A stretch of DNA of 64,000 nucleotides, taken from NCBI GenBank assembly GCA_002281535.1, contig NCGD01000001.1, forward strand, positions 106,231 to 170,230. Direction: 5' to 3'. The notes below the pieces were generated by a model. The model searched no databases. It had not been told where the DNA came from and was given only the letters and a program-made list of their open reading frames with translations. The position numbers and the translations under genes are program-made. The stretch comes from Sphingomonas sp. 28-63-12 (GTDB lineage Bacteria > Pseudomonadota > Alphaproteobacteria > Sphingomonadales > Sphingomonadaceae). This document shows positions 10,345 through 19,881 of the stretch, piece by piece. Position 1 is the stretch's first letter; every line of letters starts with the position of its first letter.

Positions 10345-12198
10345 CTAGCCCCTGCCCGGGGCAGCACCGGCAGCTGGATAGGGCGGCAGCGCCGTTGGCC
10401 GATCCAGCAGGCCATAGTTGATCAGCGCCTCATTCCAGAAAATCGCGCGCCCCAGCGGGCTGAGCAGCGCCTCACGGGTCTTGCGCCAGCGCCGGATCAT
10501 TGAATCCGATTCGCTCGGATTGCCGAAATCGGCATAGACTTTTGGCTTGTCGAGATCGCCCAGCTTTGCCCAGTGCATCGAATAAGGAATATGCGCCTTT
10601 TCCAGCGTCCGGCGGATCAGCGCGGCCCCTTTGGGCACGGTTTGCGCCAGCAGCGCGAGCATTTTTCGCAGATCGTCGATCTGCGGCGTCTCGGGGGGCA
10701 GTTGGGCAGCCTGCAGATTGCAGACGAACGGCGACAGACCATCAATCTCGATCACGGCATTTTCCTCGAAGCGCGTGAAGGCCAGTGACCCGCCGGGATG
10801 CGACACGAACCGCACCGTGAACACAAACGAGCCCGGCAAGTCCTTTACCGCTTCGCAGATCAGCGGGATCGCCTTGCGCAGGTCGCTGCGCGGCACCGCG
10901 AAAGAGGCGTTGTACAGCGCCCCCGGAATGCCGCCGGTGATGTCGTCGCCGTGCAGCTGCCCCCAAACATAACTGGTTGCGCCACCAGGGCCGGGCTTGA
11001 AGGGCATCAGCCCGGGCTCGAACATCCCCTTGCTGCGATAATAATCGAAGGCCGAGCTGTTTCCCTCCAGCAAGTAGCGGAGCACCGGGGCGGTCGGATC
11101 GGGCAGACTGACCGCCGGGCGAGCGGCGGCGCCAACAGCGGCCATCGTGGTCGCCATAGCGGCAACCGCGTCACCCGGGCGCATCAACCCGGCATGCGAC
11201 GTCGAGCCGATGGTCTTGGCGGTTGCGGCAAAATACATGGTGTGGAGGGCGTGCTTGCCGAAGGGCGCATGCGGATCGAAGGTGATCTCGTAAAAGGCGG
11301 GCGCCCCCGCGAAGCCAAGCCGCTTGGCAACCTTGGCGAACTGGCCACAGGAAATCTCTGCCAGCCAGTCGGCATTGACCGCGACATCACGCTTGAGCAG
11401 CCCAAAAGGCTGATTGTCGACCAGCTCGACAGCAACGCCGTTGACGATCCCCATCCCGCCGAGATGGACCAGAGCATCCTCGAACATGGCGTCGTCGCGC
11501 ACCACCCGCACCGGGTTGCCGCTGCCGATATCAAGCTGTTTGACGCCCGAATCGCTCAGCACGGGGTGCGAGCGGCGCTCGATCCAGACATGCTCGGACG
11601 CGCCACAGACAAGGTGCATGCCCAGCACCATATTCTGCAGACCGCCATAGCCGATCTTTGAGCCATGGCTTGCCGTCCCGAAGCCGCCCGCCAGTGTCGG
11701 ACCTAGATGGGTGCCGCTTGTCGGTACGGTCAGGCCAAAGCCTTCCGCCCACCGCACGAGTTCGCGCAGGCGGGTGCCGCCACTCGCAAAGGCAATCCGC
11801 TTGGCGGGGGTTTGGCAGTGCGGGTGAATGTCGCTCACGCTCGCCATCGAAAAGCCCGTCAATCCGTCGCACATCAGCTGCGACACCGGCGCACCGATCA
11901 GCGGTGCAAAGCTCCAGCCGCGCCCGACCAGTCCGGCGGCAAAGGGGTGAGCTAATGGGGGCGCAGCCTTGGCCTGCTTGTCCGCAAGGATCGCCGCGAC
12001 CCGGGCAACATGCTCGTGCAGCCGGACAGCCGTTGCCACGAACCGCTTCAGCCCTGTCATCCCTGCCGCATCCGCGGCATAGAGGCGGCCCTGATCCTCG
12101 ACGCGCATGACCGGAAACAACGCGCCCGCCGGCATCGGCGGTATGGTCAGGTGATAATTGGTCCACGGAACAAAGGCGTCATAACTGATGCTGGGCAC
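10345..12198 (-). CDS. FAD-linked oxidase (PCMH fold, cholesterol-oxidase/aldonolactone-oxidase-like)
   Basis: 617 residues. The FAD-binding PCMH domain spans roughly 95-290, with G-R-G-W-S-F-A-P, S-G-G-T-R-L-R-E-L and the P-T-S-G-T-H-L-G-P-T-L-A-G-G segment ending in G-T-A-S-H-G-S. The C-terminal half resembles substrate-binding domains of the vanillyl-alcohol-oxidase superfamily, including bacterial cholesterol oxidase type II. Where covalent flavoenzymes of this group have G-H-S, this protein has G-W-S, so the usual histidyl-FAD bond is unlikely here. The start is GTG 12198 behind GGGAGGAG. It follows the patatin gene after about 50 bp, likely the same operon. The substrate is not known. 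Confidence 0.8.
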   Translation of the reverse strand: MPSISYDAFVPWTNYHLTIPPMPAGALFPVMRVEDQGRLYAADAAGMTGLKRFVATAVRLHEHVARVAAILADKQAKAAPPLAHPFAAGLVGRGWSFAPLIGAPVSQLMCDGLTGFSMASVSDIHPHCQTPAKRIAFASGGTRLRELVRWAEGFGLTVPTSGTHLGPTLAGGFGTASHGSKIGYGGLQNMVLGMHLVCGASEHVWIERRSHPVLSDSGVKQLDIGSGNPVRVVRDDAMFEDALVHLGGMGIVNGVAVELVDNQPFGLLKRDVAVNADWLAEISCGQFAKVAKRLGFAGAPAFYEITFDPHAPFGKHALHTMYFAATAKTIGSTSHAGLMRPGDAVAAMATTMAAVGAAARPAVSLPDPTAPVLRYLLEGNSSAFDYYRSKGMFEPGLMPFKPGPGGATSYVWGQLHGDDITGGIPGALYNASFAVPRSDLRKAIPLICEAVKDLPGSFVFTVRFVSHPGGSLAFTRFEENAVIEIDGLSPFVCNLQAAQLPPETPQIDDLRKMLALLAQTVPKGAALIRRTLEKAHIPYSMHWAKLGDLDKPKVYADFGNPSESDSMIRRWRKTREALLSPLGRAIFWNEALINYGLLDRPTALPPYPAAGAAPGRG

Positions 12199-12249
12199 GC
12201 ATAGTCTCCTCCCGGGAATACAATGATCGGGGCTGGCCGCCGAACCGCA

Positions 12250-13710
12250 TCACTGATCACGATCCGCCCGCAGCGCGGCCTCGCGCGGGGCAGGCACCAG
12301 CGGGCTGAGGCTGATCCACGGGACAGTGGCTGCTTTTTCGCGTCCCCAGCGGACCAGACATTTCATGAAGAGCGGATCGAACAGCGTGTCCTCACCGCCC
12401 GTCTTGACGCATTTCTCGGATGCTTTTGAGGCGTAGCCATCGGCCGTGGCGACGTTGATCAGGCCGGTCGGATCGAGCAGCCGCAACCCGGCGATCGACA
12501 TCAGCTCATTCTGGTTGACGATGGTTGAATAGGCCCGCAGCGCGACAGCACCGGCATCGGGCTTGGCATCGACGCCGGCCGGCCCGCCCTCGGGGCTGGG
12601 CGTCGCTGGCCGCACCACTGTCGGGCCATTGCGAATTGCGTAAAGCGTGACATCGGCACCACCAACGCCACCACCAACGCCACCACCAGCGCCACCACCA
12701 GCGGCGGCAGTCGCCGGGGCCTGCATGGCGGCGGCTAGCTGGGCGATTCGGGCTTCGAACAAGGAATAGCGCACGCCACCGTCGAGATAGGTCTTATACT
12801 GGTTATTCGGGCCGGTGCGCAGCCGCACCGGGCGCTGAAAAACCGGCACGGCGGCCGACGCCATCGCCACGCCCACGACGCATTGGGCAACGCGCGCGAT
12901 CTGATCCTTTCGGGCGGGACCAGCGGCGGGATAGGCGCTGCGCGCGAGCCCGCTGATATCGATGGCCTTGAAGGCACCGCTGCTTGCCTCGACCATGCCG
13001 ATGAACATCCGCAAATCGGTATTGCGCGCGATCTTCTCCAGCATGGGGCAGATGCCCGGCCCCGTGCACAACAAGCGCGCCAATCGCTGTCGCAGCGGGT
13101 CGGTATCGAAGCGATAGCCCTTTTTGACGACGTCGAGATAATCGACCCGGTGGGCCAGCTCCTCTTCGGACTCGATCATATATTGCTGTTCGAGCGCCGG
13201 ATAATCATCGGCCGCCACCAGCAGCGCCTGCAGCGCCCCGGTGCTGACGCCGGTGACGATCTGAAAGGTCGGTGCGGCTGGACGATCGTGCAGCGTCCGC
13301 AGGAATCCCGCGCCAAAGGCGCCCCACCCGCCGCCGCCCGACAGCATCAGGATATTGATCCGGGGCCGGGCCAGGGCCTTGCTTTCCCGTTGCGGCACGA
13401 AGCTGGCCATTGCCCGGTAGATCGGGTCATCGCCCTCTACCAGAGCGGGTTCGGGCAAAGCGGCGTCGGGGCTTAGCAAGGACGCGGGCTGACGCTTGAG
13501 ATCGGCCCCGCGCGCAAAATCGGTCGCATCGCGCTGGATCTCGGGCAGGACGGGCGACACGCTATAGTCGGCCAGATAAGGCGACAGCTGGCTCCCCGTG
13601 CAGTCGAAATCGAGCGGCTCGGCGCCCAATTTGACGCAGCCGCCAAGCGACAGGCTGAGGATGACAAGAAGCGGCGCCAGGGACGCCCGCAGCTGCCAAT
13701 GCATCATCAT
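12250..13710 (-). CDS. Patatin-like phospholipase, lipoprotein
   Basis: About 486 residues. The signal peptide ends in the lipobox L-G-G-C (cysteine ~25), so it is an outer- or inner-membrane lipoprotein. Patatin catalytic parts: oxyanion loop S-G-G-G-G-W-G-A-F-G (~125-134), nucleophile elbow G-V-S-T-G (Ser ~156) and D-G-G in Y-L-D-G-G-V-R-Y, giving a Ser-Asp dyad. A low-complexity Gly/Ala/Val insert follows. The start is one of three consecutive ATGs (13710, 13707, 13704) behind a G-run. It is first in a unit with the FAD oxidase and divergent from the regulator at 13852. It probably cleaves acyl esters of lipids. Confidence 0.88.
   Translation of the reverse strand: MMMHWQLRASLAPLLVILSLSLGGCVKLGAEPLDFDCTGSQLSPYLADYSVSPVLPEIQRDATDFARGADLKRQPASLLSPDAALPEPALVEGDDPIYRAMASFVPQRESKALARPRINILMLSGGGGWGAFGAGFLRTLHDRPAAPTFQIVTGVSTGALQALLVAADDYPALEQQYMIESEEELAHRVDYLDVVKKGYRFDTDPLRQRLARLLCTGPGICPMLEKIARNTDLRMFIGMVEASSGAFKAIDISGLARSAYPAAGPARKDQIARVAQCVVGVAMASAAVPVFQRPVRLRTGPNNQYKTYLDGGVRYSLFEARIAQLAAAMQAPATAAAGGGAGGGVGGGVGGADVTLYAIRNGPTVVRPATPSPEGGPAGVDAKPDAGAVALRAYSTIVNQNELMSIAGLRLLDPTGLINVATADGYASKASEKCVKTGGEDTLFDPLFMKCLVRWGREKAATVPWISLSPLVPAPREAALRADRDQ
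12656..12702 (-). repeat. 12-bp tandem repeat in the patatin gene
   Basis: Three copies of GCCACCACCARC plus a partial fourth on the + strand, coding a (G-G-G-A/V) run in the lipoprotein. The period is a multiple of three, so length changes stay in frame. It sits in a non-catalytic insert after the D-G-G motif. Confidence 0.9.
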
Positions 13711-13851
13711 CACCCCCCGGCTTACGCTGCTGCCGGCGATTCGCCCGCTTCATGCCAGTCAACGCTACGAACCGCTGCGTCCAAAAAACGTGAAATTGTT
13801 TGTATTGCCGGTTAGGCGAGCTAACTTGTTGTACCGGGAGCACAACGATCA

Positions 13852-15588
13852 ATGGAGAAATACAAGCTCGACCTGATCGGCCCCTTCGGCTTGTTTACGC
13901 CGGACGGCCGTCGGATCGATGTTACCAGTAAGAAGTCGATTGCGTTGATCGCGCTGATCATCGTGTCGCCAAGCGGTGTCCGTTCGCGTCGGTGGCTGCA
14001 AAACATGTTGTGGGGCACGCGCGAAGATCTTCAGGCGCAGACCAGTTTGCGGCGCGAACTGTCCAATTTGACCAAGCAATTGGCGGCCTATGGCGCGGAT
14101 CATCTGCTCGTACGCGGCACCCAGCGGGTCAGCTTGGCGATCGAGCAGCTTGAGGTCGATATCTTTTCGCTGGGTCTGCAGGCCACCCGGCGCAAATCGT
14201 CGCTCTCCAGTGATTTTCTGGAAGGGATCGACCTGCGCGATTGCGAGGAATTCGAGGACTGGCTGCGCAGCGAGCGCGAGCGGGTCCGCGATATGATCGC
14301 GATCGACCTGCCCGATCCGCCCGCCGCCCTGCCCGCCGGGTACGAAATTCTCGGCATGGCGATGCCCAGTTCGGACGAGATCCTCACCAACCGGTCTCCC
14401 CGATTGCCGCCCAAGCCGTCGCTGGCGGTGCTGCCCTTTACCCAGTTGCCGCTTGACGATGGCTGGCTCGGCGCCGGCATTGCCGATGAGATTGGCGTGA
14501 TCCTGTCGCAGTTTCCGCAGCTGTTCATCGTTGCCAGCAGTTCCGCCCGCGCGCTCGCGGCCCAGCAATTGCCGCGCCCCGAGATCGCCGCCCGGCTCGG
14601 CGTGCGCTACCTGCTCGGCGGCACCGTCATGCGCGCCGGCGACAAATTGCGCCTGTCGGTCGTGCTGATCAACGGAGAAACCGGCGAGCAGGTCTGGGCG
14701 CAGGCATTTGACGGCTGCACCGACGATATCTTCGCCCTGCAGCGCGAAATTGCCGACCGGATCGCCCCGCAAATTTGGAGCACGGTCGATAGTGCCGAAC
14801 GTCACCGCGGCCTTCGGCTGATCGGCCCGCCCATGGGCGATTATGAAGTCTATTGGCGGGCCAATGCCTTGTTCCGCAGCGGCGACAAGGATCAGCTGTT
14901 CGAGGCGACGACGCTGGCCGAGCAATTGGTGGCGCAGGATCCAACCTGCCCCTGGGCGGCGTCGCTGGCGAGCTATTGCCATAGCATTGCCTATCTGCGG
15001 CGGCTTGTGCCGGATTATGAGGCCAGCCTGCGCCGGGCGATCATCCATTTCCAGTCGGCGATGCGGTTCGGCTCGGACAATGTCGAAGCGCTGGGCTATT
15101 CGGCGGGCACCCTGATCAACATCGGCGGCGATATGGCCGTGGCCGACCGGATCATTTCGCACGCGCTTCAGCTGTTGCCGGCGCACCAGCCTACCCTGTT
15201 CTGGGGCGGTTGGGTGGATGTCGTCAGCGGCAAGCCGGAGCGCGCACGGGACCGGCTCGAACTGGCGCTGCGGATCAACCCAGCCACCGGCGCGCGCGGC
15301 CAGACATTATGCGGGATTGGCCTGGCCTGGCTGCAACAGGGCAATGCGCAAAAGGCTTTCCGGTTCCTGCAGGAGGCGGCACAGGACGGCAACGGCTTCT
15401 TCCTCACCGATTTCGGGCTCTGCGTGGCGGCCAGTCTGGTTGGCGAGGCGGAGATTGCCCGAAACGCGGCACTGGCGCTTGGCGATGGCGATTTTTCCGG
15501 GGTTATCGGGATGTTCAAAAATCCGGAATATCGCGCCATGTTCGAACAGGCTCTGAAGGGCCGGGCGATCGATCCGCTATCGGCCTAG
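13852..15588 (+). CDS. Winged-helix transcriptional regulator with TolB/FlgO-like and TPR parts
   Basis: 578 residues. The N-terminal ~105 residues look like an OmpR/SARP-type winged helix: G-P-F-G-L-F-T-P-D-G-R-R-I-D-V, then S-L-R-R-E-L-S-N-L and a V-D-I-F strand. From ~180 a P-S-L-A-V-L-P-F motif opens a FlgO/TolB-like domain (with Y-L-L-G-G-T-V and E-T-G-E-Q-V-W-A-Q) often found in regulators linked to adenylate-cyclase-like proteins. From ~320 several helical repeats look like TPRs. No membrane helix is visible. It is divergent from the patatin/oxidase unit across 141 bp and is their likely regulator, by position. Only a weak GTTGT-N9-ACAAC repeat overlaps its ribosome-binding site. Confidence 0.8.
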   Translation: MEKYKLDLIGPFGLFTPDGRRIDVTSKKSIALIALIIVSPSGVRSRRWLQNMLWGTREDLQAQTSLRRELSNLTKQLAAYGADHLLVRGTQRVSLAIEQLEVDIFSLGLQATRRKSSLSSDFLEGIDLRDCEEFEDWLRSERERVRDMIAIDLPDPPAALPAGYEILGMAMPSSDEILTNRSPRLPPKPSLAVLPFTQLPLDDGWLGAGIADEIGVILSQFPQLFIVASSSARALAAQQLPRPEIAARLGVRYLLGGTVMRAGDKLRLSVVLINGETGEQVWAQAFDGCTDDIFALQREIADRIAPQIWSTVDSAERHRGLRLIGPPMGDYEVYWRANALFRSGDKDQLFEATTLAEQLVAQDPTCPWAASLASYCHSIAYLRRLVPDYEASLRRAIIHFQSAMRFGSDNVEALGYSAGTLINIGGDMAVADRIISHALQLLPAHQPTLFWGGWVDVVSGKPERARDRLELALRINPATGARGQTLCGIGLAWLQQGNAQKAFRFLQEAAQDGNGFFLTDFGLCVAASLVGEAEIARNAALALGDGDFSGVIGMFKNPEYRAMFEQALKGRAIDPLSA

Positions 15589-16100
15589 CAGCGGGGAAGC
15601 CGGCCCGCGACGGCAGCCGTGGCGATGAGCGTGATTGATGCCGTGGCGTGTCCCGGCATTTTTTTCACGCTTTTAGGACGCTGCATTCACAGCACCCGGA
15701 CGCGGCCAGCGTAGGAATCGGGTGCCGAATCTGGAAGGGATTCGGCACCCGATGGGGGGCACCAGCCTATGTTGCAAGACACGCACTATCTGCGTGGTGC
15801 GGCCGTTTCACGCCGCATCGATGCGTTGCGAATCGACCCAGCCGACCCGATGGCCGGTGGTGACGTGGATCCGCCGGCTGCCGGCAAGTCGGCATCGACC
15901 GGCACGGTCTTCGCGGCAAGGCTGATGCTGTTGCGATCTCAGGCGGCGGCGCGCCCTCGATCAGGGGGACGCCCGCGGATCGCGCTGCGCCCACGGGAAA
16001 TTTTGCGCGCGCGCGTTCTTCCACGGCCCCGCCTTGTGGCCCGGCTTCGCGGTCGCCTGCAGCAATGCCGCCCCAGTTTTGCAGATTAAGGCCATTTCAC
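15589..16100. other. 512-bp stretch without a convincing gene
   Basis: Between the TPR regulator and the permease. Short frames exist on both strands (for example 15769-16089 +) but none has a recognisable family, a good ribosome-binding site or convincing composition; they are Arg/Pro-rich as expected of non-coding GC-rich DNA. The only clear structure is the hairpin at 15717-15753. It may be leader DNA of the downstream cassette or the eroded remains of a gene. Confidence 0.6.
15717..15753. repeat. Perfect 15-bp inverted repeat with 7-base loop
   Basis: Arms ATCGGGTGCCGAATC (15717-15731) and its exact complement (15739-15753), loop TGGAAGG. It lies 129 bp after the regulator stop. No T-run follows on either strand, so it is not a standard intrinsic terminator. 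It may act as a transcript-end stabiliser, a regulatory RNA structure or a recombination site. Confidence 0.9.
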
Positions 16101-16913
16101 ATGTTCCTGGCTCGCCTCGCCGCGCCATTACTGTTCGTGCGATTCGTTCTCCAGCGCGACTGGCGGGCCCTGTCGATGACATTAATGGCGTGTGCGGCGG
16201 CGGCGGTGATCGGCAGCTTTCAATATAGCGTCTACGCCTCGTTCGTCCGCTCTTCGGCGATCACGCTGCTCCCGGTCGAGGGGCATGCCTGCGGTCAGGC
16301 ACTGGTCGGCGCATGCGGCCGGTCCGCCTTGCCATTCAGCCAGTCCTTCCCCCTGTCGGTCGCGCATTTTGCACCGCTTGGGCAGGCCCGCGATCTGGCC
16401 GTTGCTGCCCCGCGCGAGGCGATCGCGCTGCTGGTCAGCGATGAAGTGGCCGACTTGCGGCCCGGCCAATTGCCGGTGCCGAGCCGGCAGGCACCGGCAA
16501 GCGTGCCGGGGTCGGCGCGTTGGTCGGTATCCGGCGCGGATATCGCCATTGCGCTTGGATCGTGCCTGGCGGGGGTGTTGATGGCGGTGCTGATCGCCAA
16601 CGGCATCTTGCGGTTTCTGCAGCGCTACCGCCAGGATTTGATTGCGCTGATCGGTCATGGCGCGCAGCAGCGTGACATTGCACTGATTGTCTGCGGCATC
16701 GCCTATATGATCGTGCTGGTGACGATGGCGGCCGCTTTGCTGCTAACGCCCATTCTTGTCGGGCTTGTCCAGCCCTTGCTGCCCTGGGCCCAGTTCCACT
16801 GGGCCGATAGCGCCGTGCCGCTGGCGATCATGGACGCCAGCCTGGTGGCAGCGCTTGTCTATGTGCGCCGGACGATCAGGGGCTTCGGGCCGGAATTGAT
16901 GTTCGGCGTCTGA
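16101..16913 (+). CDS. Compact FtsX/DevC-like ABC transporter permease
   Basis: 270 residues. One membrane helix near the N-terminus (about 22-48), a small periplasmic part of ~85 residues, then three helices (about 148-172, 191-222 and 230-250) and a terminal R-R-T-I-R-G-F-G-P-E-L-M-F-G-V, like the tail of DevC/FtsX-type permeases. DevC and MacB-like permeases are ~380-650 residues; here the periplasmic domain is much reduced. The next ABC gene supplies the ATPase. No HlyD/DevB adaptor gene is adjacent. ATG 16101 follows AAGG by 9 bases. Family assignment rests on topology and the C-terminal motif, so it is moderately certain. Confidence 0.7.
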   Translation: MFLARLAAPLLFVRFVLQRDWRALSMTLMACAAAAVIGSFQYSVYASFVRSSAITLLPVEGHACGQALVGACGRSALPFSQSFPLSVAHFAPLGQARDLAVAAPREAIALLVSDEVADLRPGQLPVPSRQAPASVPGSARWSVSGADIAIALGSCLAGVLMAVLIANGILRFLQRYRQDLIALIGHGAQQRDIALIVCGIAYMIVLVTMAAALLLTPILVGLVQPLLPWAQFHWADSAVPLAIMDASLVAALVYVRRTIRGFGPELMFGV

Positions 16914-16990
16914 TGGACAGCAACAGCGCCCTCAGGCCGGCCCGAACCGCCAATCCGCGCCTGGTGGCAACGCCGGCCAGTCGGCCATGA
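16913..16990 (+). CDS. Possible 25-codon coupled micro-ORF
   Basis: ATG 16913 shares its A with the permease stop (TGATG), and its own TGA overlaps the ATPase start (ATGA). The peptide begins M-D-S-N-S-A-L-R-P-A and ends P-A-S-R-P, is basic and has no hydrophobic segment. There is no family match that I know. It may simply keep ribosomes moving between two genes, or be chance; the exact double overlap is the only support. Confidence 0.3.
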   Translation: MDSNSALRPARTANPRLVATPASRP

Positions 16991-17643
16991 CGGCCGTCGC
17001 AATGAAGCTGCAGGCGATGACTCATAATGTGGGGAGCGGTGCCAAACAGCGCTGCACGCTTGCACCGGTCACCAAGCGGCTTGATCCCGGTGTCTTCGTG
17101 GTGGTCGCCGGCCCGTCAGGGGCGGGCAAGACCACCTTGCTGTCGTTGCTGTCGCGGTCGGTCCGATCGGCGCAAGGCCAGCTTTTCTGGGGTCGCGAAG
17201 ATCTTTCCACCTTTACCGCGGCGCAGGCCGCGCGCTGGCGGCGCGACAATATCGGCCTGATTCTGCAGACGAGCAACCTCGTCGCCTTCATGACGGCGTT
17301 CGAAAATGTTCGCCTGGCCGGGCATGTTCGCGGCGTTGATACGCGTCGGCAGGGCCGCCGAATGATGGACTCGTTCGGGCTTGGCGACCGGCTGGACGAT
17401 CGACCGGCGCAACTCTCTGCCGACGAGAAGCAGCGGCTGGCCATTGCTCAGACATTGGCCTGCCGTCCCAACATCCTCCTCGCCGACGAACCGACCACCG
17501 CGCTGGCCCCCGCCAATGCCCGGTTCGCGGCGACGATGCTGGCTGACTATGCCCATCAAGCCGCCGCAATCGTGGTCTGCGTTTCCAATGACGATGCCGT
17601 GATCTCGGCGGCGGATCATGTTCTCCATCTCGAAAAACCGTGA
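16987..17643 (+). CDS. ABC transporter ATP-binding protein (DevA/LolD-like) with degenerate motifs
   Basis: 218 residues. Walker A G-P-S-G-A-G-K-T-T (42-50), Q-loop Q94 in L-I-L-Q-T-S-N-L, Walker B I-L-L-A-D-E (163-168). The length and the L-x-x-x-F/N-L-V-x-x-x-T-A-x-E-N-V pattern fit the DevA/LolD/MacB group, matching the FtsX-like permease upstream. Two motifs are unusual: the signature is L-S-A-D-E (143-147) rather than L-S-G-G-Q/E, and the switch histidine is replaced by Asn (V-S-N-D, N201). The D-loop is also altered (A-L-A for A-L-D). It may hydrolyse ATP slowly or differently. It overlaps the methyltransferase gene by 4 bp. Confidence 0.85.
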   Translation: MTAVAMKLQAMTHNVGSGAKQRCTLAPVTKRLDPGVFVVVAGPSGAGKTTLLSLLSRSVRSAQGQLFWGREDLSTFTAAQAARWRRDNIGLILQTSNLVAFMTAFENVRLAGHVRGVDTRRQGRRMMDSFGLGDRLDDRPAQLSADEKQRLAIAQTLACRPNILLADEPTTALAPANARFAATMLADYAHQAAAIVVCVSNDDAVISAADHVLHLEKP

Positions 17644-18524
17644 GAAACACCATGCAGAACCAGGCATTTTATGATCAGGCCCTCCGCTTGCTCGAGGCTG
17701 GGGATATCGAGGTTGCGGTCAACAGCGTGGCCGGCAGGCTCGCCGGGGAGCATGGATCGGGCGCGTGCTGGAAGGATGCACGGGCCGCGCTCCAGCAGCA
17801 CCAGCTGTTCAGCGTCTTGATGGAAGACCCGGCCACGGCCCGCTGCGTGACACGGCCGCGCGGCTTTCCGGGCGATGCGGCGCTGATCGATCTTTATTAT
17901 GATCGCCGGCCGCCGGTCGAAACCTCCCCGCTCGGGGCGGACATCTTCGCGGTTACGTCCGCCTTCCAGGCCGCCGAAGCAGTCCGCCAGCGGCGGCAGG
18001 ATGGGGAGATGATCATCGAACAGGCCTGGCATGACGGCAATCAGATTTGTGTGCTGGGATGCGGCCATTTGCGCGAGGCAGACGGGCTGATCGGCCAGGA
18101 TCTCAGCAATGTCGTTGCCGTCGATCAGGATCCCCTCGCCCTCGATGTCGTTCAGTCGAAGCATGGCGCCAGCATCAGCTGTGCCGAGAGCAGCGTGTTT
18201 CGATATCTCCGCAAGACGATCAAGGCCGGCCGGAAATTCGATCTTATCTATGCGCCGGGCCTGACCGACTATGTCGACAATTCGGCCATGCAATTGCTCT
18301 ATCGCTTGGCCTTGCCGTGTCTGGCGCCAGGGGGGCGGTTCCTGCTGGCCAATTTCGTCCCCGATCATCGCAGCGTGGGATGGATGGAAGGGGTGATGGA
18401 TTGGGCATTATTCTACCGGACCGAATCGGGTCTGGCCCGGATCGCCAATGAACGCGGCCTGCGCGCCAACACATGGCGGGACGCGACCGGCACCATTGCC
18501 TGGTGTGAGGTTCACAAGGGATGA
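17640..18524 (+). CDS. SAM-dependent methyltransferase resembling PhcB (3-hydroxypalmitate methyl ester synthesis)
   Basis: 294 residues. The N-terminal helical part contains T-R-P-R-G-F-P-G-D-A-A-L-I-D-L-Y-Y, which matches the K-P-R-G-Y-x-G-D signature of the family annotated as extracellular factor (3-OH palmitic acid methyl ester) biosynthesis proteins, as I recall it. The Rossmann part has motif I I-C-V-L-G-C-G-H-L-R-E-A (~136-147), acidic V-A-V-D-Q-D, A-P-G-L-T-D-Y, G-G-R-F-L-L-A-N-F and a terminal M-D-W-A-L-F-Y-R. PhcB of Ralstonia makes a quorum signal by methylating a hydroxy fatty acid. Start: GTG 17640 (overlapping the ATPase stop) or ATG 17652. Coupling to an ABC pair suggests that its product is exported, which is inference. 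Confidence 0.75.
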   Translation: MRNTMQNQAFYDQALRLLEAGDIEVAVNSVAGRLAGEHGSGACWKDARAALQQHQLFSVLMEDPATARCVTRPRGFPGDAALIDLYYDRRPPVETSPLGADIFAVTSAFQAAEAVRQRRQDGEMIIEQAWHDGNQICVLGCGHLREADGLIGQDLSNVVAVDQDPLALDVVQSKHGASISCAESSVFRYLRKTIKAGRKFDLIYAPGLTDYVDNSAMQLLYRLALPCLAPGGRFLLANFVPDHRSVGWMEGVMDWALFYRTESGLARIANERGLRANTWRDATGTIAWCEVHKG

Positions 18525-18598
18525 TTCCACCCCGGCCGCGATTACCCTTTAGCCGCTATGGCCCCTCGCAATATCAGGCTGGAATGGCGCACCCCGCC

Positions 18599-19393
18599 TC
18601 ATAATCGAACCGATGGTCCCAGCACGACCGCGAAGATCGTCAGCACGATCCCGCCGCCCAGGATCACTGCCCATTGCCGGCGCACGACAAAGGCCCGCGG
18701 CGCCTCTGCCCCACCGGCCGCGAAGCCGATCGAGATAAATCCCGCCAGCCCGCCAAAAGAAGAGGCCGCCGCCGACATGATCGTCACGAACAACCCCACC
18801 GGGTTGAGCAGGCCGACCACCACTGCCCCCAGCCCGGACGCTGCATAGAAAATATGGGCAATCCGCCGCCGCGCCGGGCGGGTTGCCGCGCCGGTGCCAA
18901 GCATGGTGCTGAGCGCGGCGACCGCTGCCCGCACCATCAGGATATACGCGCCGATGCCGATGCCGATCTCGCCCAATCGCCATCCCAGCGGCATTGGCAG
19001 GGCCGCCAGGCTGCCCTGCGCGCTGGTGCCGAGGTCGCCGACGCCGGTCACGCCCGAAAAACAGAAATAGCCCGCCGCGACGAACGCCTCGCTGACCCAC
19101 ACCAGCCACAGCATCAGCCGCGCGCCGTCGCCCGTCGCCCGCCGCCAACAGGCATAAGCGATGAGCGCCAGGACGATGTTCATCGCGACTCCGGCGCCCG
19201 CCACGACGATATCGGCCACGCCTGACAGGCCAGTGCACTCGACATAAAAGGCGCCGATCATGGCGACATGCCCCCCCTGCAGCGTGCAAGCCGCCGCATG
19301 CCCGGCAATCTCGTGCCACATGGTGAGCAGCGGCATCAGCAGCGCTCCCCAGCCGGCCATGGTCAGCCGGTCCACATCTTGTCGTACCGCCAC
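18599..19393 (-). CDS. Polytopic membrane protein with M50-like HE-x3-H motif
   Basis: 264 residues with about six or seven membrane helices. The first helix region contains W-H-E-I-A-G-H-A-A-A-C (H27, E28, H32), which resembles the zinc motif of intramembrane M50 metallopeptidases, but the spacing is H-E-x3-H instead of H-E-x2-H. I see no clear second metal-binding motif (N/D-x-x-P-D-G); N-P-V-G-L near residue 200 is the nearest. It may be a divergent M50B-like protein or a non-peptidase with a chance motif. It converges with the methyltransferase gene. The start ATG 19393 has no strong Shine-Dalgarno. Confidence 0.65.
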   Translation of the reverse strand: MAVRQDVDRLTMAGWGALLMPLLTMWHEIAGHAAACTLQGGHVAMIGAFYVECTGLSGVADIVVAGAGVAMNIVLALIAYACWRRATGDGARLMLWLVWVSEAFVAAGYFCFSGVTGVGDLGTSAQGSLAALPMPLGWRLGEIGIGIGAYILMVRAAVAALSTMLGTGAATRPARRRIAHIFYAASGLGAVVVGLLNPVGLFVTIMSAAASSFGGLAGFISIGFAAGGAEAPRAFVVRRQWAVILGGGIVLTIFAVVLGPSVRL

Positions 19394-19660
19394 CGCAGGA
19401 TCCTCCGCAGCCCTTGCCGTACGCAGCTTAGGCCAAGCCCCGATCGGGGCAAGGGCCGTCGCATCACGCGGCCCAGGCCCGATCAGGACGATGGCGGGGC
19501 TGCCTGCCGGGCGGTTCGATCAGGCGACTCCGCCGCTGCGCCGGCGCGCTCGCCTGTGGCGGAGCCCGCCGAGGATCGCCGACGGCGGCGGCGCACAACA
19601 CCAATTACACCCGCAACGCCGAGGGTTTCAGATCTATGCTATGGCAATGGAGCAAAAGGC

Positions 19661-19734
19661 TGGATGCCCCGTGAGGATTCGAACCTCAATTAACGGAGTC
19701 AGAGTCCGTAGTCTTACCATTAGACGACAGGGCA
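19661..19734 (-). tRNA. tRNA-Gln (anticodon CTG)
   Basis: 74 nt with the CCA end encoded. Acceptor stem TGCCCTG/CGGGGCA (one G-U pair), D-arm GTCT-loop-AGAC, anticodon stem ACGGA/TCCGT with loop CTCTGAC giving anticodon CTG, T-arm TGAGG-TTCGAAT-CCTCA. U1-A72 is typical of glutamine tRNAs. The discriminator base 73 is U, where G or A is usual for Gln. It is transcribed from the promoter at 19748-19776. Confidence 0.93.
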
Positions 19735-19747
19735 GTGCCGGGGCCGC

Positions 19748-19776
19748 GAGATAGGCGGCGCGCGATCCGCTGTCAA
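19748..19776 (-). promoter_or_regulatory. Sigma-70 promoter of tRNA-Gln
   Basis: On the minus strand: TTGACA (19776-19771), 17-bp spacer, TATCTC (19753-19748), followed by a GC-rich discriminator and the tRNA 5' end about 14 bases downstream of the -10 box. The consensus -35 and the GC-rich start region are typical of stable-RNA promoters under growth-rate or stringent control. Confidence 0.75.
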
Positions 19777-19881
19777 CGGGCCGGCTCGCTTGCCGCCGCT
19801 GCGCTGCTCGGCTAGGCTTGCGCCCAAGCACGGTGGGGGCGTCACGCCCCGGACCGCAGAACATAAGTGTGAGCAACGGCC

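What the first reader, a model, noticed from the sequence alone, without database searches (positions are those of the whole stretch)
16101..18524. Cassette of mini-permease, DevA-like ATPase and PhcB-like methyltransferase
The genes overlap or touch, so they are made together. The methyltransferase resembles PhcB, which produces a 3-OH fatty acid methyl ester quorum signal. The ABC pair belongs to the DevC/DevA, LolD group that moves lipids. Together they could make and export a methylated lipid signal or glycolipid. The permease is about 100 residues shorter than DevC and no HlyD-type adaptor is adjacent, so it would be a reduced exporter.
Basis: partly seen in the sequence, partly recalled or inferred. 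Interest (0 to 1): 0.7.

Follow-up and report, generated by a model that had tools for sequence, protein, structure and literature searches.

The report
Methyltransferase with a decaying exporter
A bacterial methyltransferase gene sits beside a membrane pump that has lost its adaptor, part of its outer domain and key catalytic residues, while its closest relatives lack the pump at this place but keep the enzyme, so this looks like an old make-and-export cassette whose export half is fading.

Summary
The methyltransferase belongs to the PhcB superfamily, distantly: it matches the methyltransferase of a phcBSRQ-like operon (24% identity; profile E 3e-28). Linkage to ABC genes recurs: besides the window genome, 2 of 298 sampled family genomes (G119, G137) carry a tight four-gene cassette of DevC-like permease, HlyD adaptor, DevA-like ATPase and methyltransferase. 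The window has a degenerate form. The adaptor is gone. The permease is 103-113 residues shorter. The ATPase, alone among 24 ABC hits in its genome, combines LSGGE>LSADE, D-loop Asp>Ala and H-loop His>Asn. ATPase and permease evolved fast, the methyltransferase far less so. The two nearest relatives keep regulator, small ORF and methyltransferase (80% identical) with no ABC genes between them. I therefore doubt a working reduced exporter. The selected function is probably the methyltransferase, perhaps controlled by its upstream winged-helix/TPR regulator through a 21-bp motif found at both promoters. The ABC frames are still open, so an ATP-binding, non-transport role is not excluded. The substrate is unknown; a fatty-acid methyl ester is an untested guess.

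The parts
13852..15588 (+). Probable transcriptional regulator (winged-helix-like N-terminus, middle domain, TPR C-terminus), 578 aa; in L008 and L009 it also precedes the small ORF and methyltransferase
   Evidence: ORF; dN/dS 0.09 against L008 and L009; TPR_2 just below cut-off, profile matches to TPR structures; Trans_reg_C weakly in 2 of 4 N-termini scanned, not in the window's own
15661..15681 (+). Operator-like motif TTTTTCACGCTTTTAGGACGC upstream of the small ORF/ABC/methyltransferase genes
   Evidence: the same motif stands at the matching place in L008 and L009
13777..13797 (-). Second copy of the motif (2 mismatches) in the divergent region between patatin-like gene and regulator
   Evidence: 0 of 100 shuffled windows had any match within 3 mismatches; a copy also lies upstream of the regulator homologue in L008, L021 and L022
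15717..15753 (.). Perfect 15-bp inverted repeat (7-nt loop) between regulator and small ORF
15769..16089 (+). Small coding ORF, 106 aa, Arg/Pro-rich C-terminus
   Evidence: conserved in L008 and L009 (about 50% identity) with in-frame constraint
16101..16913 (+). Short DevC/FtsX-like permease, 270 aa; transmembrane core kept, periplasmic domain reduced
16913..16990 (+). 25-codon ORF in the place where homologous cassettes carry the HlyD adaptor gene; relic not demonstrated
   Evidence: of 9 comparisons with HlyD genes the best was 11 of 500 shuffles as high, not significant for nine tests
16987..17643 (+). DevA-like ABC ATPase, 218 aa; Walker A/B kept, signature LSADE, D-loop ALA, H-loop SND
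17652..18524 (+). PhcB-superfamily class I SAM methyltransferase, 290 aa (alternative start GTG 17640)

Best explanation
The locus is a derived form of a four-gene cassette of the family: PhcB-superfamily methyltransferase plus a DevBCA-like (type VII ABC) exporter made of permease, HlyD adaptor and ATPase. In the window lineage the adaptor is gone, the permease's periplasmic domain has shrunk and the ATPase has lost residues needed for hydrolysis, so the pair no longer works as an ATP-driven tripartite exporter. The methyltransferase remains the selected function; it probably methylates a small carboxylic acid (a 3-hydroxy fatty acid by analogy with PhcB) and is made under the upstream winged-helix/TPR regulator together with the small basic protein. 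Shown: the cassette in G119 and G137, the missing adaptor and shortened permease, the substitutions, the faster evolution, the persistence of methyltransferase without ABC genes. Inferred: loss of transport, regulator binding to the motif, direction of change, substrate.
For: Full cassettes in L068 (permease 383 aa, HlyD 340 aa, ATPase, methyltransferase 47% identical to the window's) and L069 (HlyD confirmed by Pfam). Window permease 270 against 373-383 aa. Motif changes; in 23 other ABC rows of the own genome SGG 22 of 23, D-loop Asp 23 of 23, H-loop His 14 of the 15 readable (two rows returned the same alignment). Relative-rate counts window:G119 with G137 as outgroup: ATPase 61:15, permease 83:27, methyltransferase 38:22. 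L008 and L009 lack the ABC stretch but keep the methyltransferase, dN/dS 0.03-0.14. Tree: window+L008+L009 98%, with G119 as next 99% SH-aLRT. Motif at both promoters.
Against: Both ABC frames are open: neutral decay since the split from L008/L009 would be expected to give about 13-15 stop codons and none is seen, so decay is either late or the proteins still do something. The methyltransferase is itself somewhat accelerated (p 0.04; L008 likewise, p 0.02). G137's methyltransferase sits in another clade than G119's, so the cassette may have formed twice. No biochemical evidence.
Confidence: 0.55

Rival explanations
1. The ABC pair has been re-used: an ATP-binding but non-hydrolysing membrane complex that regulates or anchors the methyltransferase, in the manner of FtsEX-type signalling, with no transport.
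For: Open frames over 488 codons although fast evolving: 13-15 stops expected under neutrality since the split; Walker A and B kept; coding-like G+C by codon position; transmembrane core and coupling helix modelled well; nearest folds include FtsX and HrtB.
Against: L008 and L009 keep the methyltransferase without it; no conserved relative of the reduced pair was found to test constraint; the excess of missense changes alone gives only 2.8 expected stops, P(0) 0.06, so late relaxation fits too.
Confidence: 0.25
2. One reading: a working, adaptor-less exporter of a methylated lipid signal or glycolipid made by the neighbouring methyltransferase.
For: Conserved linkage with an intact exporter in G119 and G137; DevA/DevC kinship; HrtB-like permeases work without an HlyD adaptor (recalled; HrtB is the best fold match, E 0.012).
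Against: Signature, D-loop and H-loop changes in the only ATPase of the pair; missing adaptor and periplasmic domain; absence of the ABC genes at the same place in L008 and L009.
Confidence: 0.1
3. The ABC pair was inserted between small ORF and methyltransferase in the window lineage, and L008/L009 show the ancestral state.
For: Of the family genomes seen, regulator and small ORF occur with the ABC pair only in the window; methyltransferase linkage to ABC genes is patchy (G348 has none nearby).
Against: The sister methyltransferase (G119) carries the exporter. About 25 nt at the right junction of L008 and L009 match the last codons of the window ATPase and the methyltransferase leader (2 of 500 shuffles each), though part of this may be leader conservation only.
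Confidence: 0.1

Closest known systems
PhcB of the phcBSRQ quorum-sensing operon (Ralstonia and relatives)
   Same: Homologous methyltransferase domain with the shared blocks KP-G-aGD, GL-DYL, PGGR---N and ME--m-W-l-yR. PhcB makes 3-hydroxy fatty acid methyl esters (passages of PMC6989110 and PMC10653808).
   Different: 24% identity to the methyltransferase (468 aa) of a phcBSRQ-like operon of Paraburkholderia graminis (L132); the window protein is 290 aa and has no sensor kinase or receiver genes beside it.
DevBCA of Anabaena, a MacB-type (type VII ABC) tripartite glycolipid exporter
   Same: DevA is the best ATPase family match; permease of the FtsX/MacB/DevC kind; G119, G137 and G102 have permease-HlyD-ATPase. 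DevBCA's role: passage of PMC5985334.
   Different: The window lacks the adaptor, most of the periplasmic domain and ATPase catalytic residues; a methyltransferase is attached to the cassette.
YbbAP-TesA, FtsEX-EnvC and HrtBA (type VII ABC without an HlyD adaptor)
   Same: FtsX-type permease with a partner enzyme or regulator in the operon or complex; HrtB and FtsX are top fold matches of the window permease (YbbAP-TesA from passages of PMC12646458).
   Different: The partner here would be a cytoplasmic methyltransferase; the ATPase motifs are degenerate; no sequence-level match to them beyond the superfamily.
PilZ-methyltransferase with adjacent histidine kinase in Alphaproteobacteria
   Same: Same methyltransferase superfamily; histidine kinase adjacent in the 6 loci inspected of 26 such hits.
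   Different: Two-domain proteins of about 480-520 aa; no ABC genes matched in the 4 tested with ABC queries (L104-L107); another clade.

Membership tests
PhcB-type signal methyltransferase | Homology over the methyltransferase domain to the enzyme of a phcBSRQ-type operon | tested here: met
   BLASTP 24% over 276 columns, E 4e-18; hhalign 99.8%, E 3e-28; the reference is a phcBSRQ-like operon by gene order and domains, not an experimentally proven PhcB
PhcB-type signal methyltransferase | Operon with PhcS-, PhcR- and PhcQ-like genes | tested here: not met
   Neighbouring genes are a TPR regulator, small ORF and ABC genes; own genome: no match to the sensor part of an alphaproteobacterial kinase, an absence without positive control
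PhcB-type signal methyltransferase | Makes a 3-hydroxy fatty acid methyl ester | not testable with these tools
   Needs chemistry
DevBCA/MacB-type tripartite exporter | FtsX-like permease with large periplasmic domain between TM1 and TM2 | tested here: not met
   About 90 residues between the first two long helices, pLDDT under 50 for 55-143; homologues 103-113 residues longer; Pfam FtsX below cut-off
DevBCA/MacB-type tripartite exporter | HlyD-type adaptor in the cassette | tested here: not met
   73 nt between permease and ATPase; present in L068, L069, L070
DevBCA/MacB-type tripartite exporter | Hydrolysis-competent ATPase (Walker A/B, LSGGQ/E, D-loop Asp, H-loop His) | tested here: not met
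   Walker A/B kept; LSADE, ALA, SND in the other three motifs; activity itself not testable
DevBCA/MacB-type tripartite exporter | TolC-like outer membrane partner | not tested
   -
OmpR/SARP-like winged-helix regulator with TPR | Trans_reg_C-type DNA-binding domain | tested here: inconclusive
   Below cut-off in 2 of 4 homologous N-termini, none in the window's own

The most novel reading that the evidence does not exclude
An ABC transporter caught in conversion to a non-hydrolysing, ATP-binding membrane complex that serves a PhcB-type methyltransferase instead of exporting its product: export is shed while signal-type methylation is kept, and in sister lineages the ABC part is then dropped.
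Probability: 0.25. Interest if true: 0.65.

Novelty: new variant of a known kind. Interest (0 to 1): 0.42.

Why it matters
Signals of the PhcB kind are usually discussed without a dedicated exporter. A cassette in which a PhcB-superfamily methyltransferase is built into a DevBCA-like exporter (G119, G137) makes the question of how such products leave the cell directly testable, and the window with its relatives L008 and L009 gives a natural series: exporter intact, degenerate, absent, with the methyltransferase kept throughout. I found no paper joining PhcB with HlyD-type exporters in the open-licence PMC library (search of PhcB + HlyD + methyltransferase: 0 papers; related searches gave nothing relevant in their listings).

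Tried and rejected
A conserved three-gene unit of exactly the window's kind was looked for and not found. In 298 family genomes the permease query gave 16 matches at E 0.01 or better, own included; only G102, G119 and G137 were strong (E 2e-20 to 6e-14), the next 1.3e-5. The methyltransferase profile gave 6 of 298, own included; of the other five I inspected G119, G137 and G348, not the weak G167 and G339. The regulator gave 8 of 298 at 1e-60; none of the eight stretches fetched around the seven other genomes' matches held a methyltransferase match.

Regulator homologues as a guide to the cassette: rejected for that reason. The small ORF as a widespread peptide: 11 of 298 at E 0.01, own included, next best only 9e-4 and partial, not inspected, so I treat it as local; its role is unknown. 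I considered, without any test, a secreted basic peptide or a leader/arrest peptide.

25-codon ORF as an HlyD relic: not significant. Left junction of L008/L009 against the permease start: not significant (257 and 299 of 500). Full-length comparison of the L008/L009 spacers with the ABC stretch: 35 and 7 of 500, mononucleotide shuffles.

Permease fold search: no match at E 0.001 or better; best HrtB at 0.012. Sigma-70-like promoters 13600-19800: 0 found; terminator-like sites 5 against 4.0 in shuffles. Plasmid collection with the G119 permease: no match.

Full report
What is there. The window lies in contig 16 of a 3.48-Mb genome in 54 contigs. On the + strand run a 578-aa probable regulator (13852-15588), a 106-aa small ORF (15769-16089), a 270-aa permease (16101-16913), a 218-aa ABC ATPase (16987-17643) and a 290-aa methyltransferase (17652-18524). 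Gaps after the small ORF are 11, 73 and 8 nt. The small ORF was not in the finding; it is coding by in-frame constraint against L008 and L009 (dN/dS 0.29-0.46, shifted frames 1.0-1.6).

Nearest relatives. A pattern-based scan of genome contigs found the methyltransferase at 80% identity in two records, L008 (Sphingomonadales bacterium Ga0077557) and L009 (a Sphingomonas MAG contig of 3.2 kb). Both have regulator, small ORF and methyltransferase in the same order, but only about 150 nt between small ORF and methyltransferase; no window DNA from the ABC stretch matches there. Whether L008's genome has the ABC genes elsewhere was not tested. The methyltransferase is under strong constraint (dN/dS 0.03 between L008 and L009, 0.12-0.14 to the window, synonymous sites near saturation). 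G530 in the order sample has the match at the coordinates of L008's contig and is very probably the same genome.

The cassette elsewhere. In 298 family genomes the methyltransferase profile matched 6 at E 1e-6, own included. Two of them also carry the permease match next door. In G119 (L068) permease, HlyD protein, ATPase and methyltransferase overlap by 20, 11 and 4 nt; in G137 (L069) methyltransferase and permease overlap by 4 and permease and HlyD by 20 nt, followed after 32 nt by the ATPase. G102 (L070) has permease, HlyD and ATPase; no methyltransferase match was found in that genome. HlyD domains were confirmed by Pfam in all three. G348 has a methyltransferase 53% identical to G137's and no ABC match within the 15 kb taken. 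The methyltransferase tree puts the window with L008 and L009 (98) and then G119 (99 SH-aLRT), G137 in another group with G348; the program warns of long branches.

What is wrong with the exporter. Against the three intact cassettes the window permease lacks two stretches in the part between the first and second transmembrane helices; its model has a confident helical core and no confident structure at 55-143 (pLDDT under 50, mean 66). The ATPase keeps Walker A and B and the Q-loop but has LSADE for LSGGE, ALA for ALD and SND for SHD; 37 of 100 columns identical in the three relatives are changed. As a control I read the same motifs in the 23 other ABC rows of the own genome: SGG in 22 of 23, D-loop Asp in 23 of 23, H-loop His in 14 of the 15 that could be read; two rows returned the same alignment, and the exceptions are L119 (signature) and L124 (H-loop, perhaps an alignment slip). 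That these residues are needed for hydrolysis, and that a single-gene ATPase acts as a homodimer so that both sites are hit, is established knowledge, not tested here. Relative-rate counts give 61:15 for the ATPase and 83:27 for the permease with G137 as outgroup (55:12 and 100:16 with G102), and 38:22 for the methyltransferase.

Against simple decay. The two ABC frames have no stop. If neutral since the split from L008/L009, with the branch taken as half of the pairwise synonymous distance, 13-15 stops would be expected; counting only the excess missense changes, 2.8 (P of none 0.06). G+C by codon position looks coding. The pair was thus under selection for much of its history; late relaxation or a changed, non-hydrolytic role both fit.

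The methyltransferase. Pfam gives only sub-threshold methyltransferase domains. A plasmid-borne operon of Paraburkholderia graminis (L132) has methyltransferase, histidine kinase, receiver and receiver-containing genes in the order of phcBSRQ (the operon is described in passages of PMC6989110 and PMC10653808). The window enzyme matches its methyltransferase at 24% (E 4e-18), the profile at E 3e-28. The model (pLDDT 85) is closest to 3ocj, an uncharacterised Bordetella protein (Foldseek E 9e-9, TM 0.63). Relatives sit in regulatory surroundings: beside a membrane histidine kinase in 6 of 6 loci inspected, of 26 such hits, and beside an EAL or GGDEF-EAL gene in 5 of 5 plasmid regions inspected, of 143 matching records. 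This makes a signal-type product plausible; the substrate is not shown.

Regulation. The motif TTTTTCACGYTTTTDGGACGC, taken from the promoter region of the small ORF, occurs once more in the window, in the divergent region between the patatin-like gene and the regulator, and in no shuffled window (0 of 100). With up to 4 mismatches it is at both places in L008, at the one place covered in L009, and upstream of the regulator homologue in L021 and L022, which have no methyltransferase match; L023, L024, L025, L068, L069 and L070 have none. L021 has a further 4-mismatch copy just beyond the regulator's 3' end. It can be read as a direct repeat about one helical turn apart, as winged-helix regulators bind (inference). 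A perfect 15-bp inverted repeat lies at 15717-15753.

Verdict. The claim of a reduced but working lipid-signal exporter is unlikely; a methyltransferase that is outliving its exporter fits best, with re-use of the ABC pair as the bold alternative.

Noticed in passing
window 10345-13713 (-); L021, L022: FAD-binding oxidase-like gene and patatin-like lipoprotein gene divergent from the regulator; both neighbours also stand beside the regulator homologues in L021 and L022 (assigned there by eye). In L008 no patatin-like ORF lies between oxidase and regulator.
   Followed up: partly
L002, L004, L104-L107: Pairs of methyltransferase and membrane histidine kinase in Alphaproteobacteria; in L002 the methyltransferase is fused to a PilZ domain, a possible c-di-GMP-responsive PhcB/PhcS-like system.
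   Followed up: partly
L047-L051: Rhizobium and Roseateles plasmids: methyltransferase divergent from an EAL or GGDEF-EAL gene in all five regions looked at.
   Followed up: partly
L132:6653-11028: phcBSRQ-like gene order on a conjugative plasmid of Paraburkholderia graminis.
   Followed up: partly
L011:2183-10794: Prosthecobacter methyltransferase followed by hybrid histidine-kinase and receiver genes, a phc-like arrangement outside Proteobacteria (by eye).
   Followed up: no
L069:5487-7241: Protein with a TIR-like start (by eye) two genes upstream of the G137 cassette region, on the other strand.
   Followed up: no
window 18599-19393 (-): Multi-helix membrane protein with an HExxH motif near its start, downstream and convergent; no Pfam family above threshold.
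   Followed up: no
window 15769-16089: Arg/Pro-rich C-terminus of the small ORF with repeated R-P-R steps, conserved in L008 and L009.
   Followed up: partly
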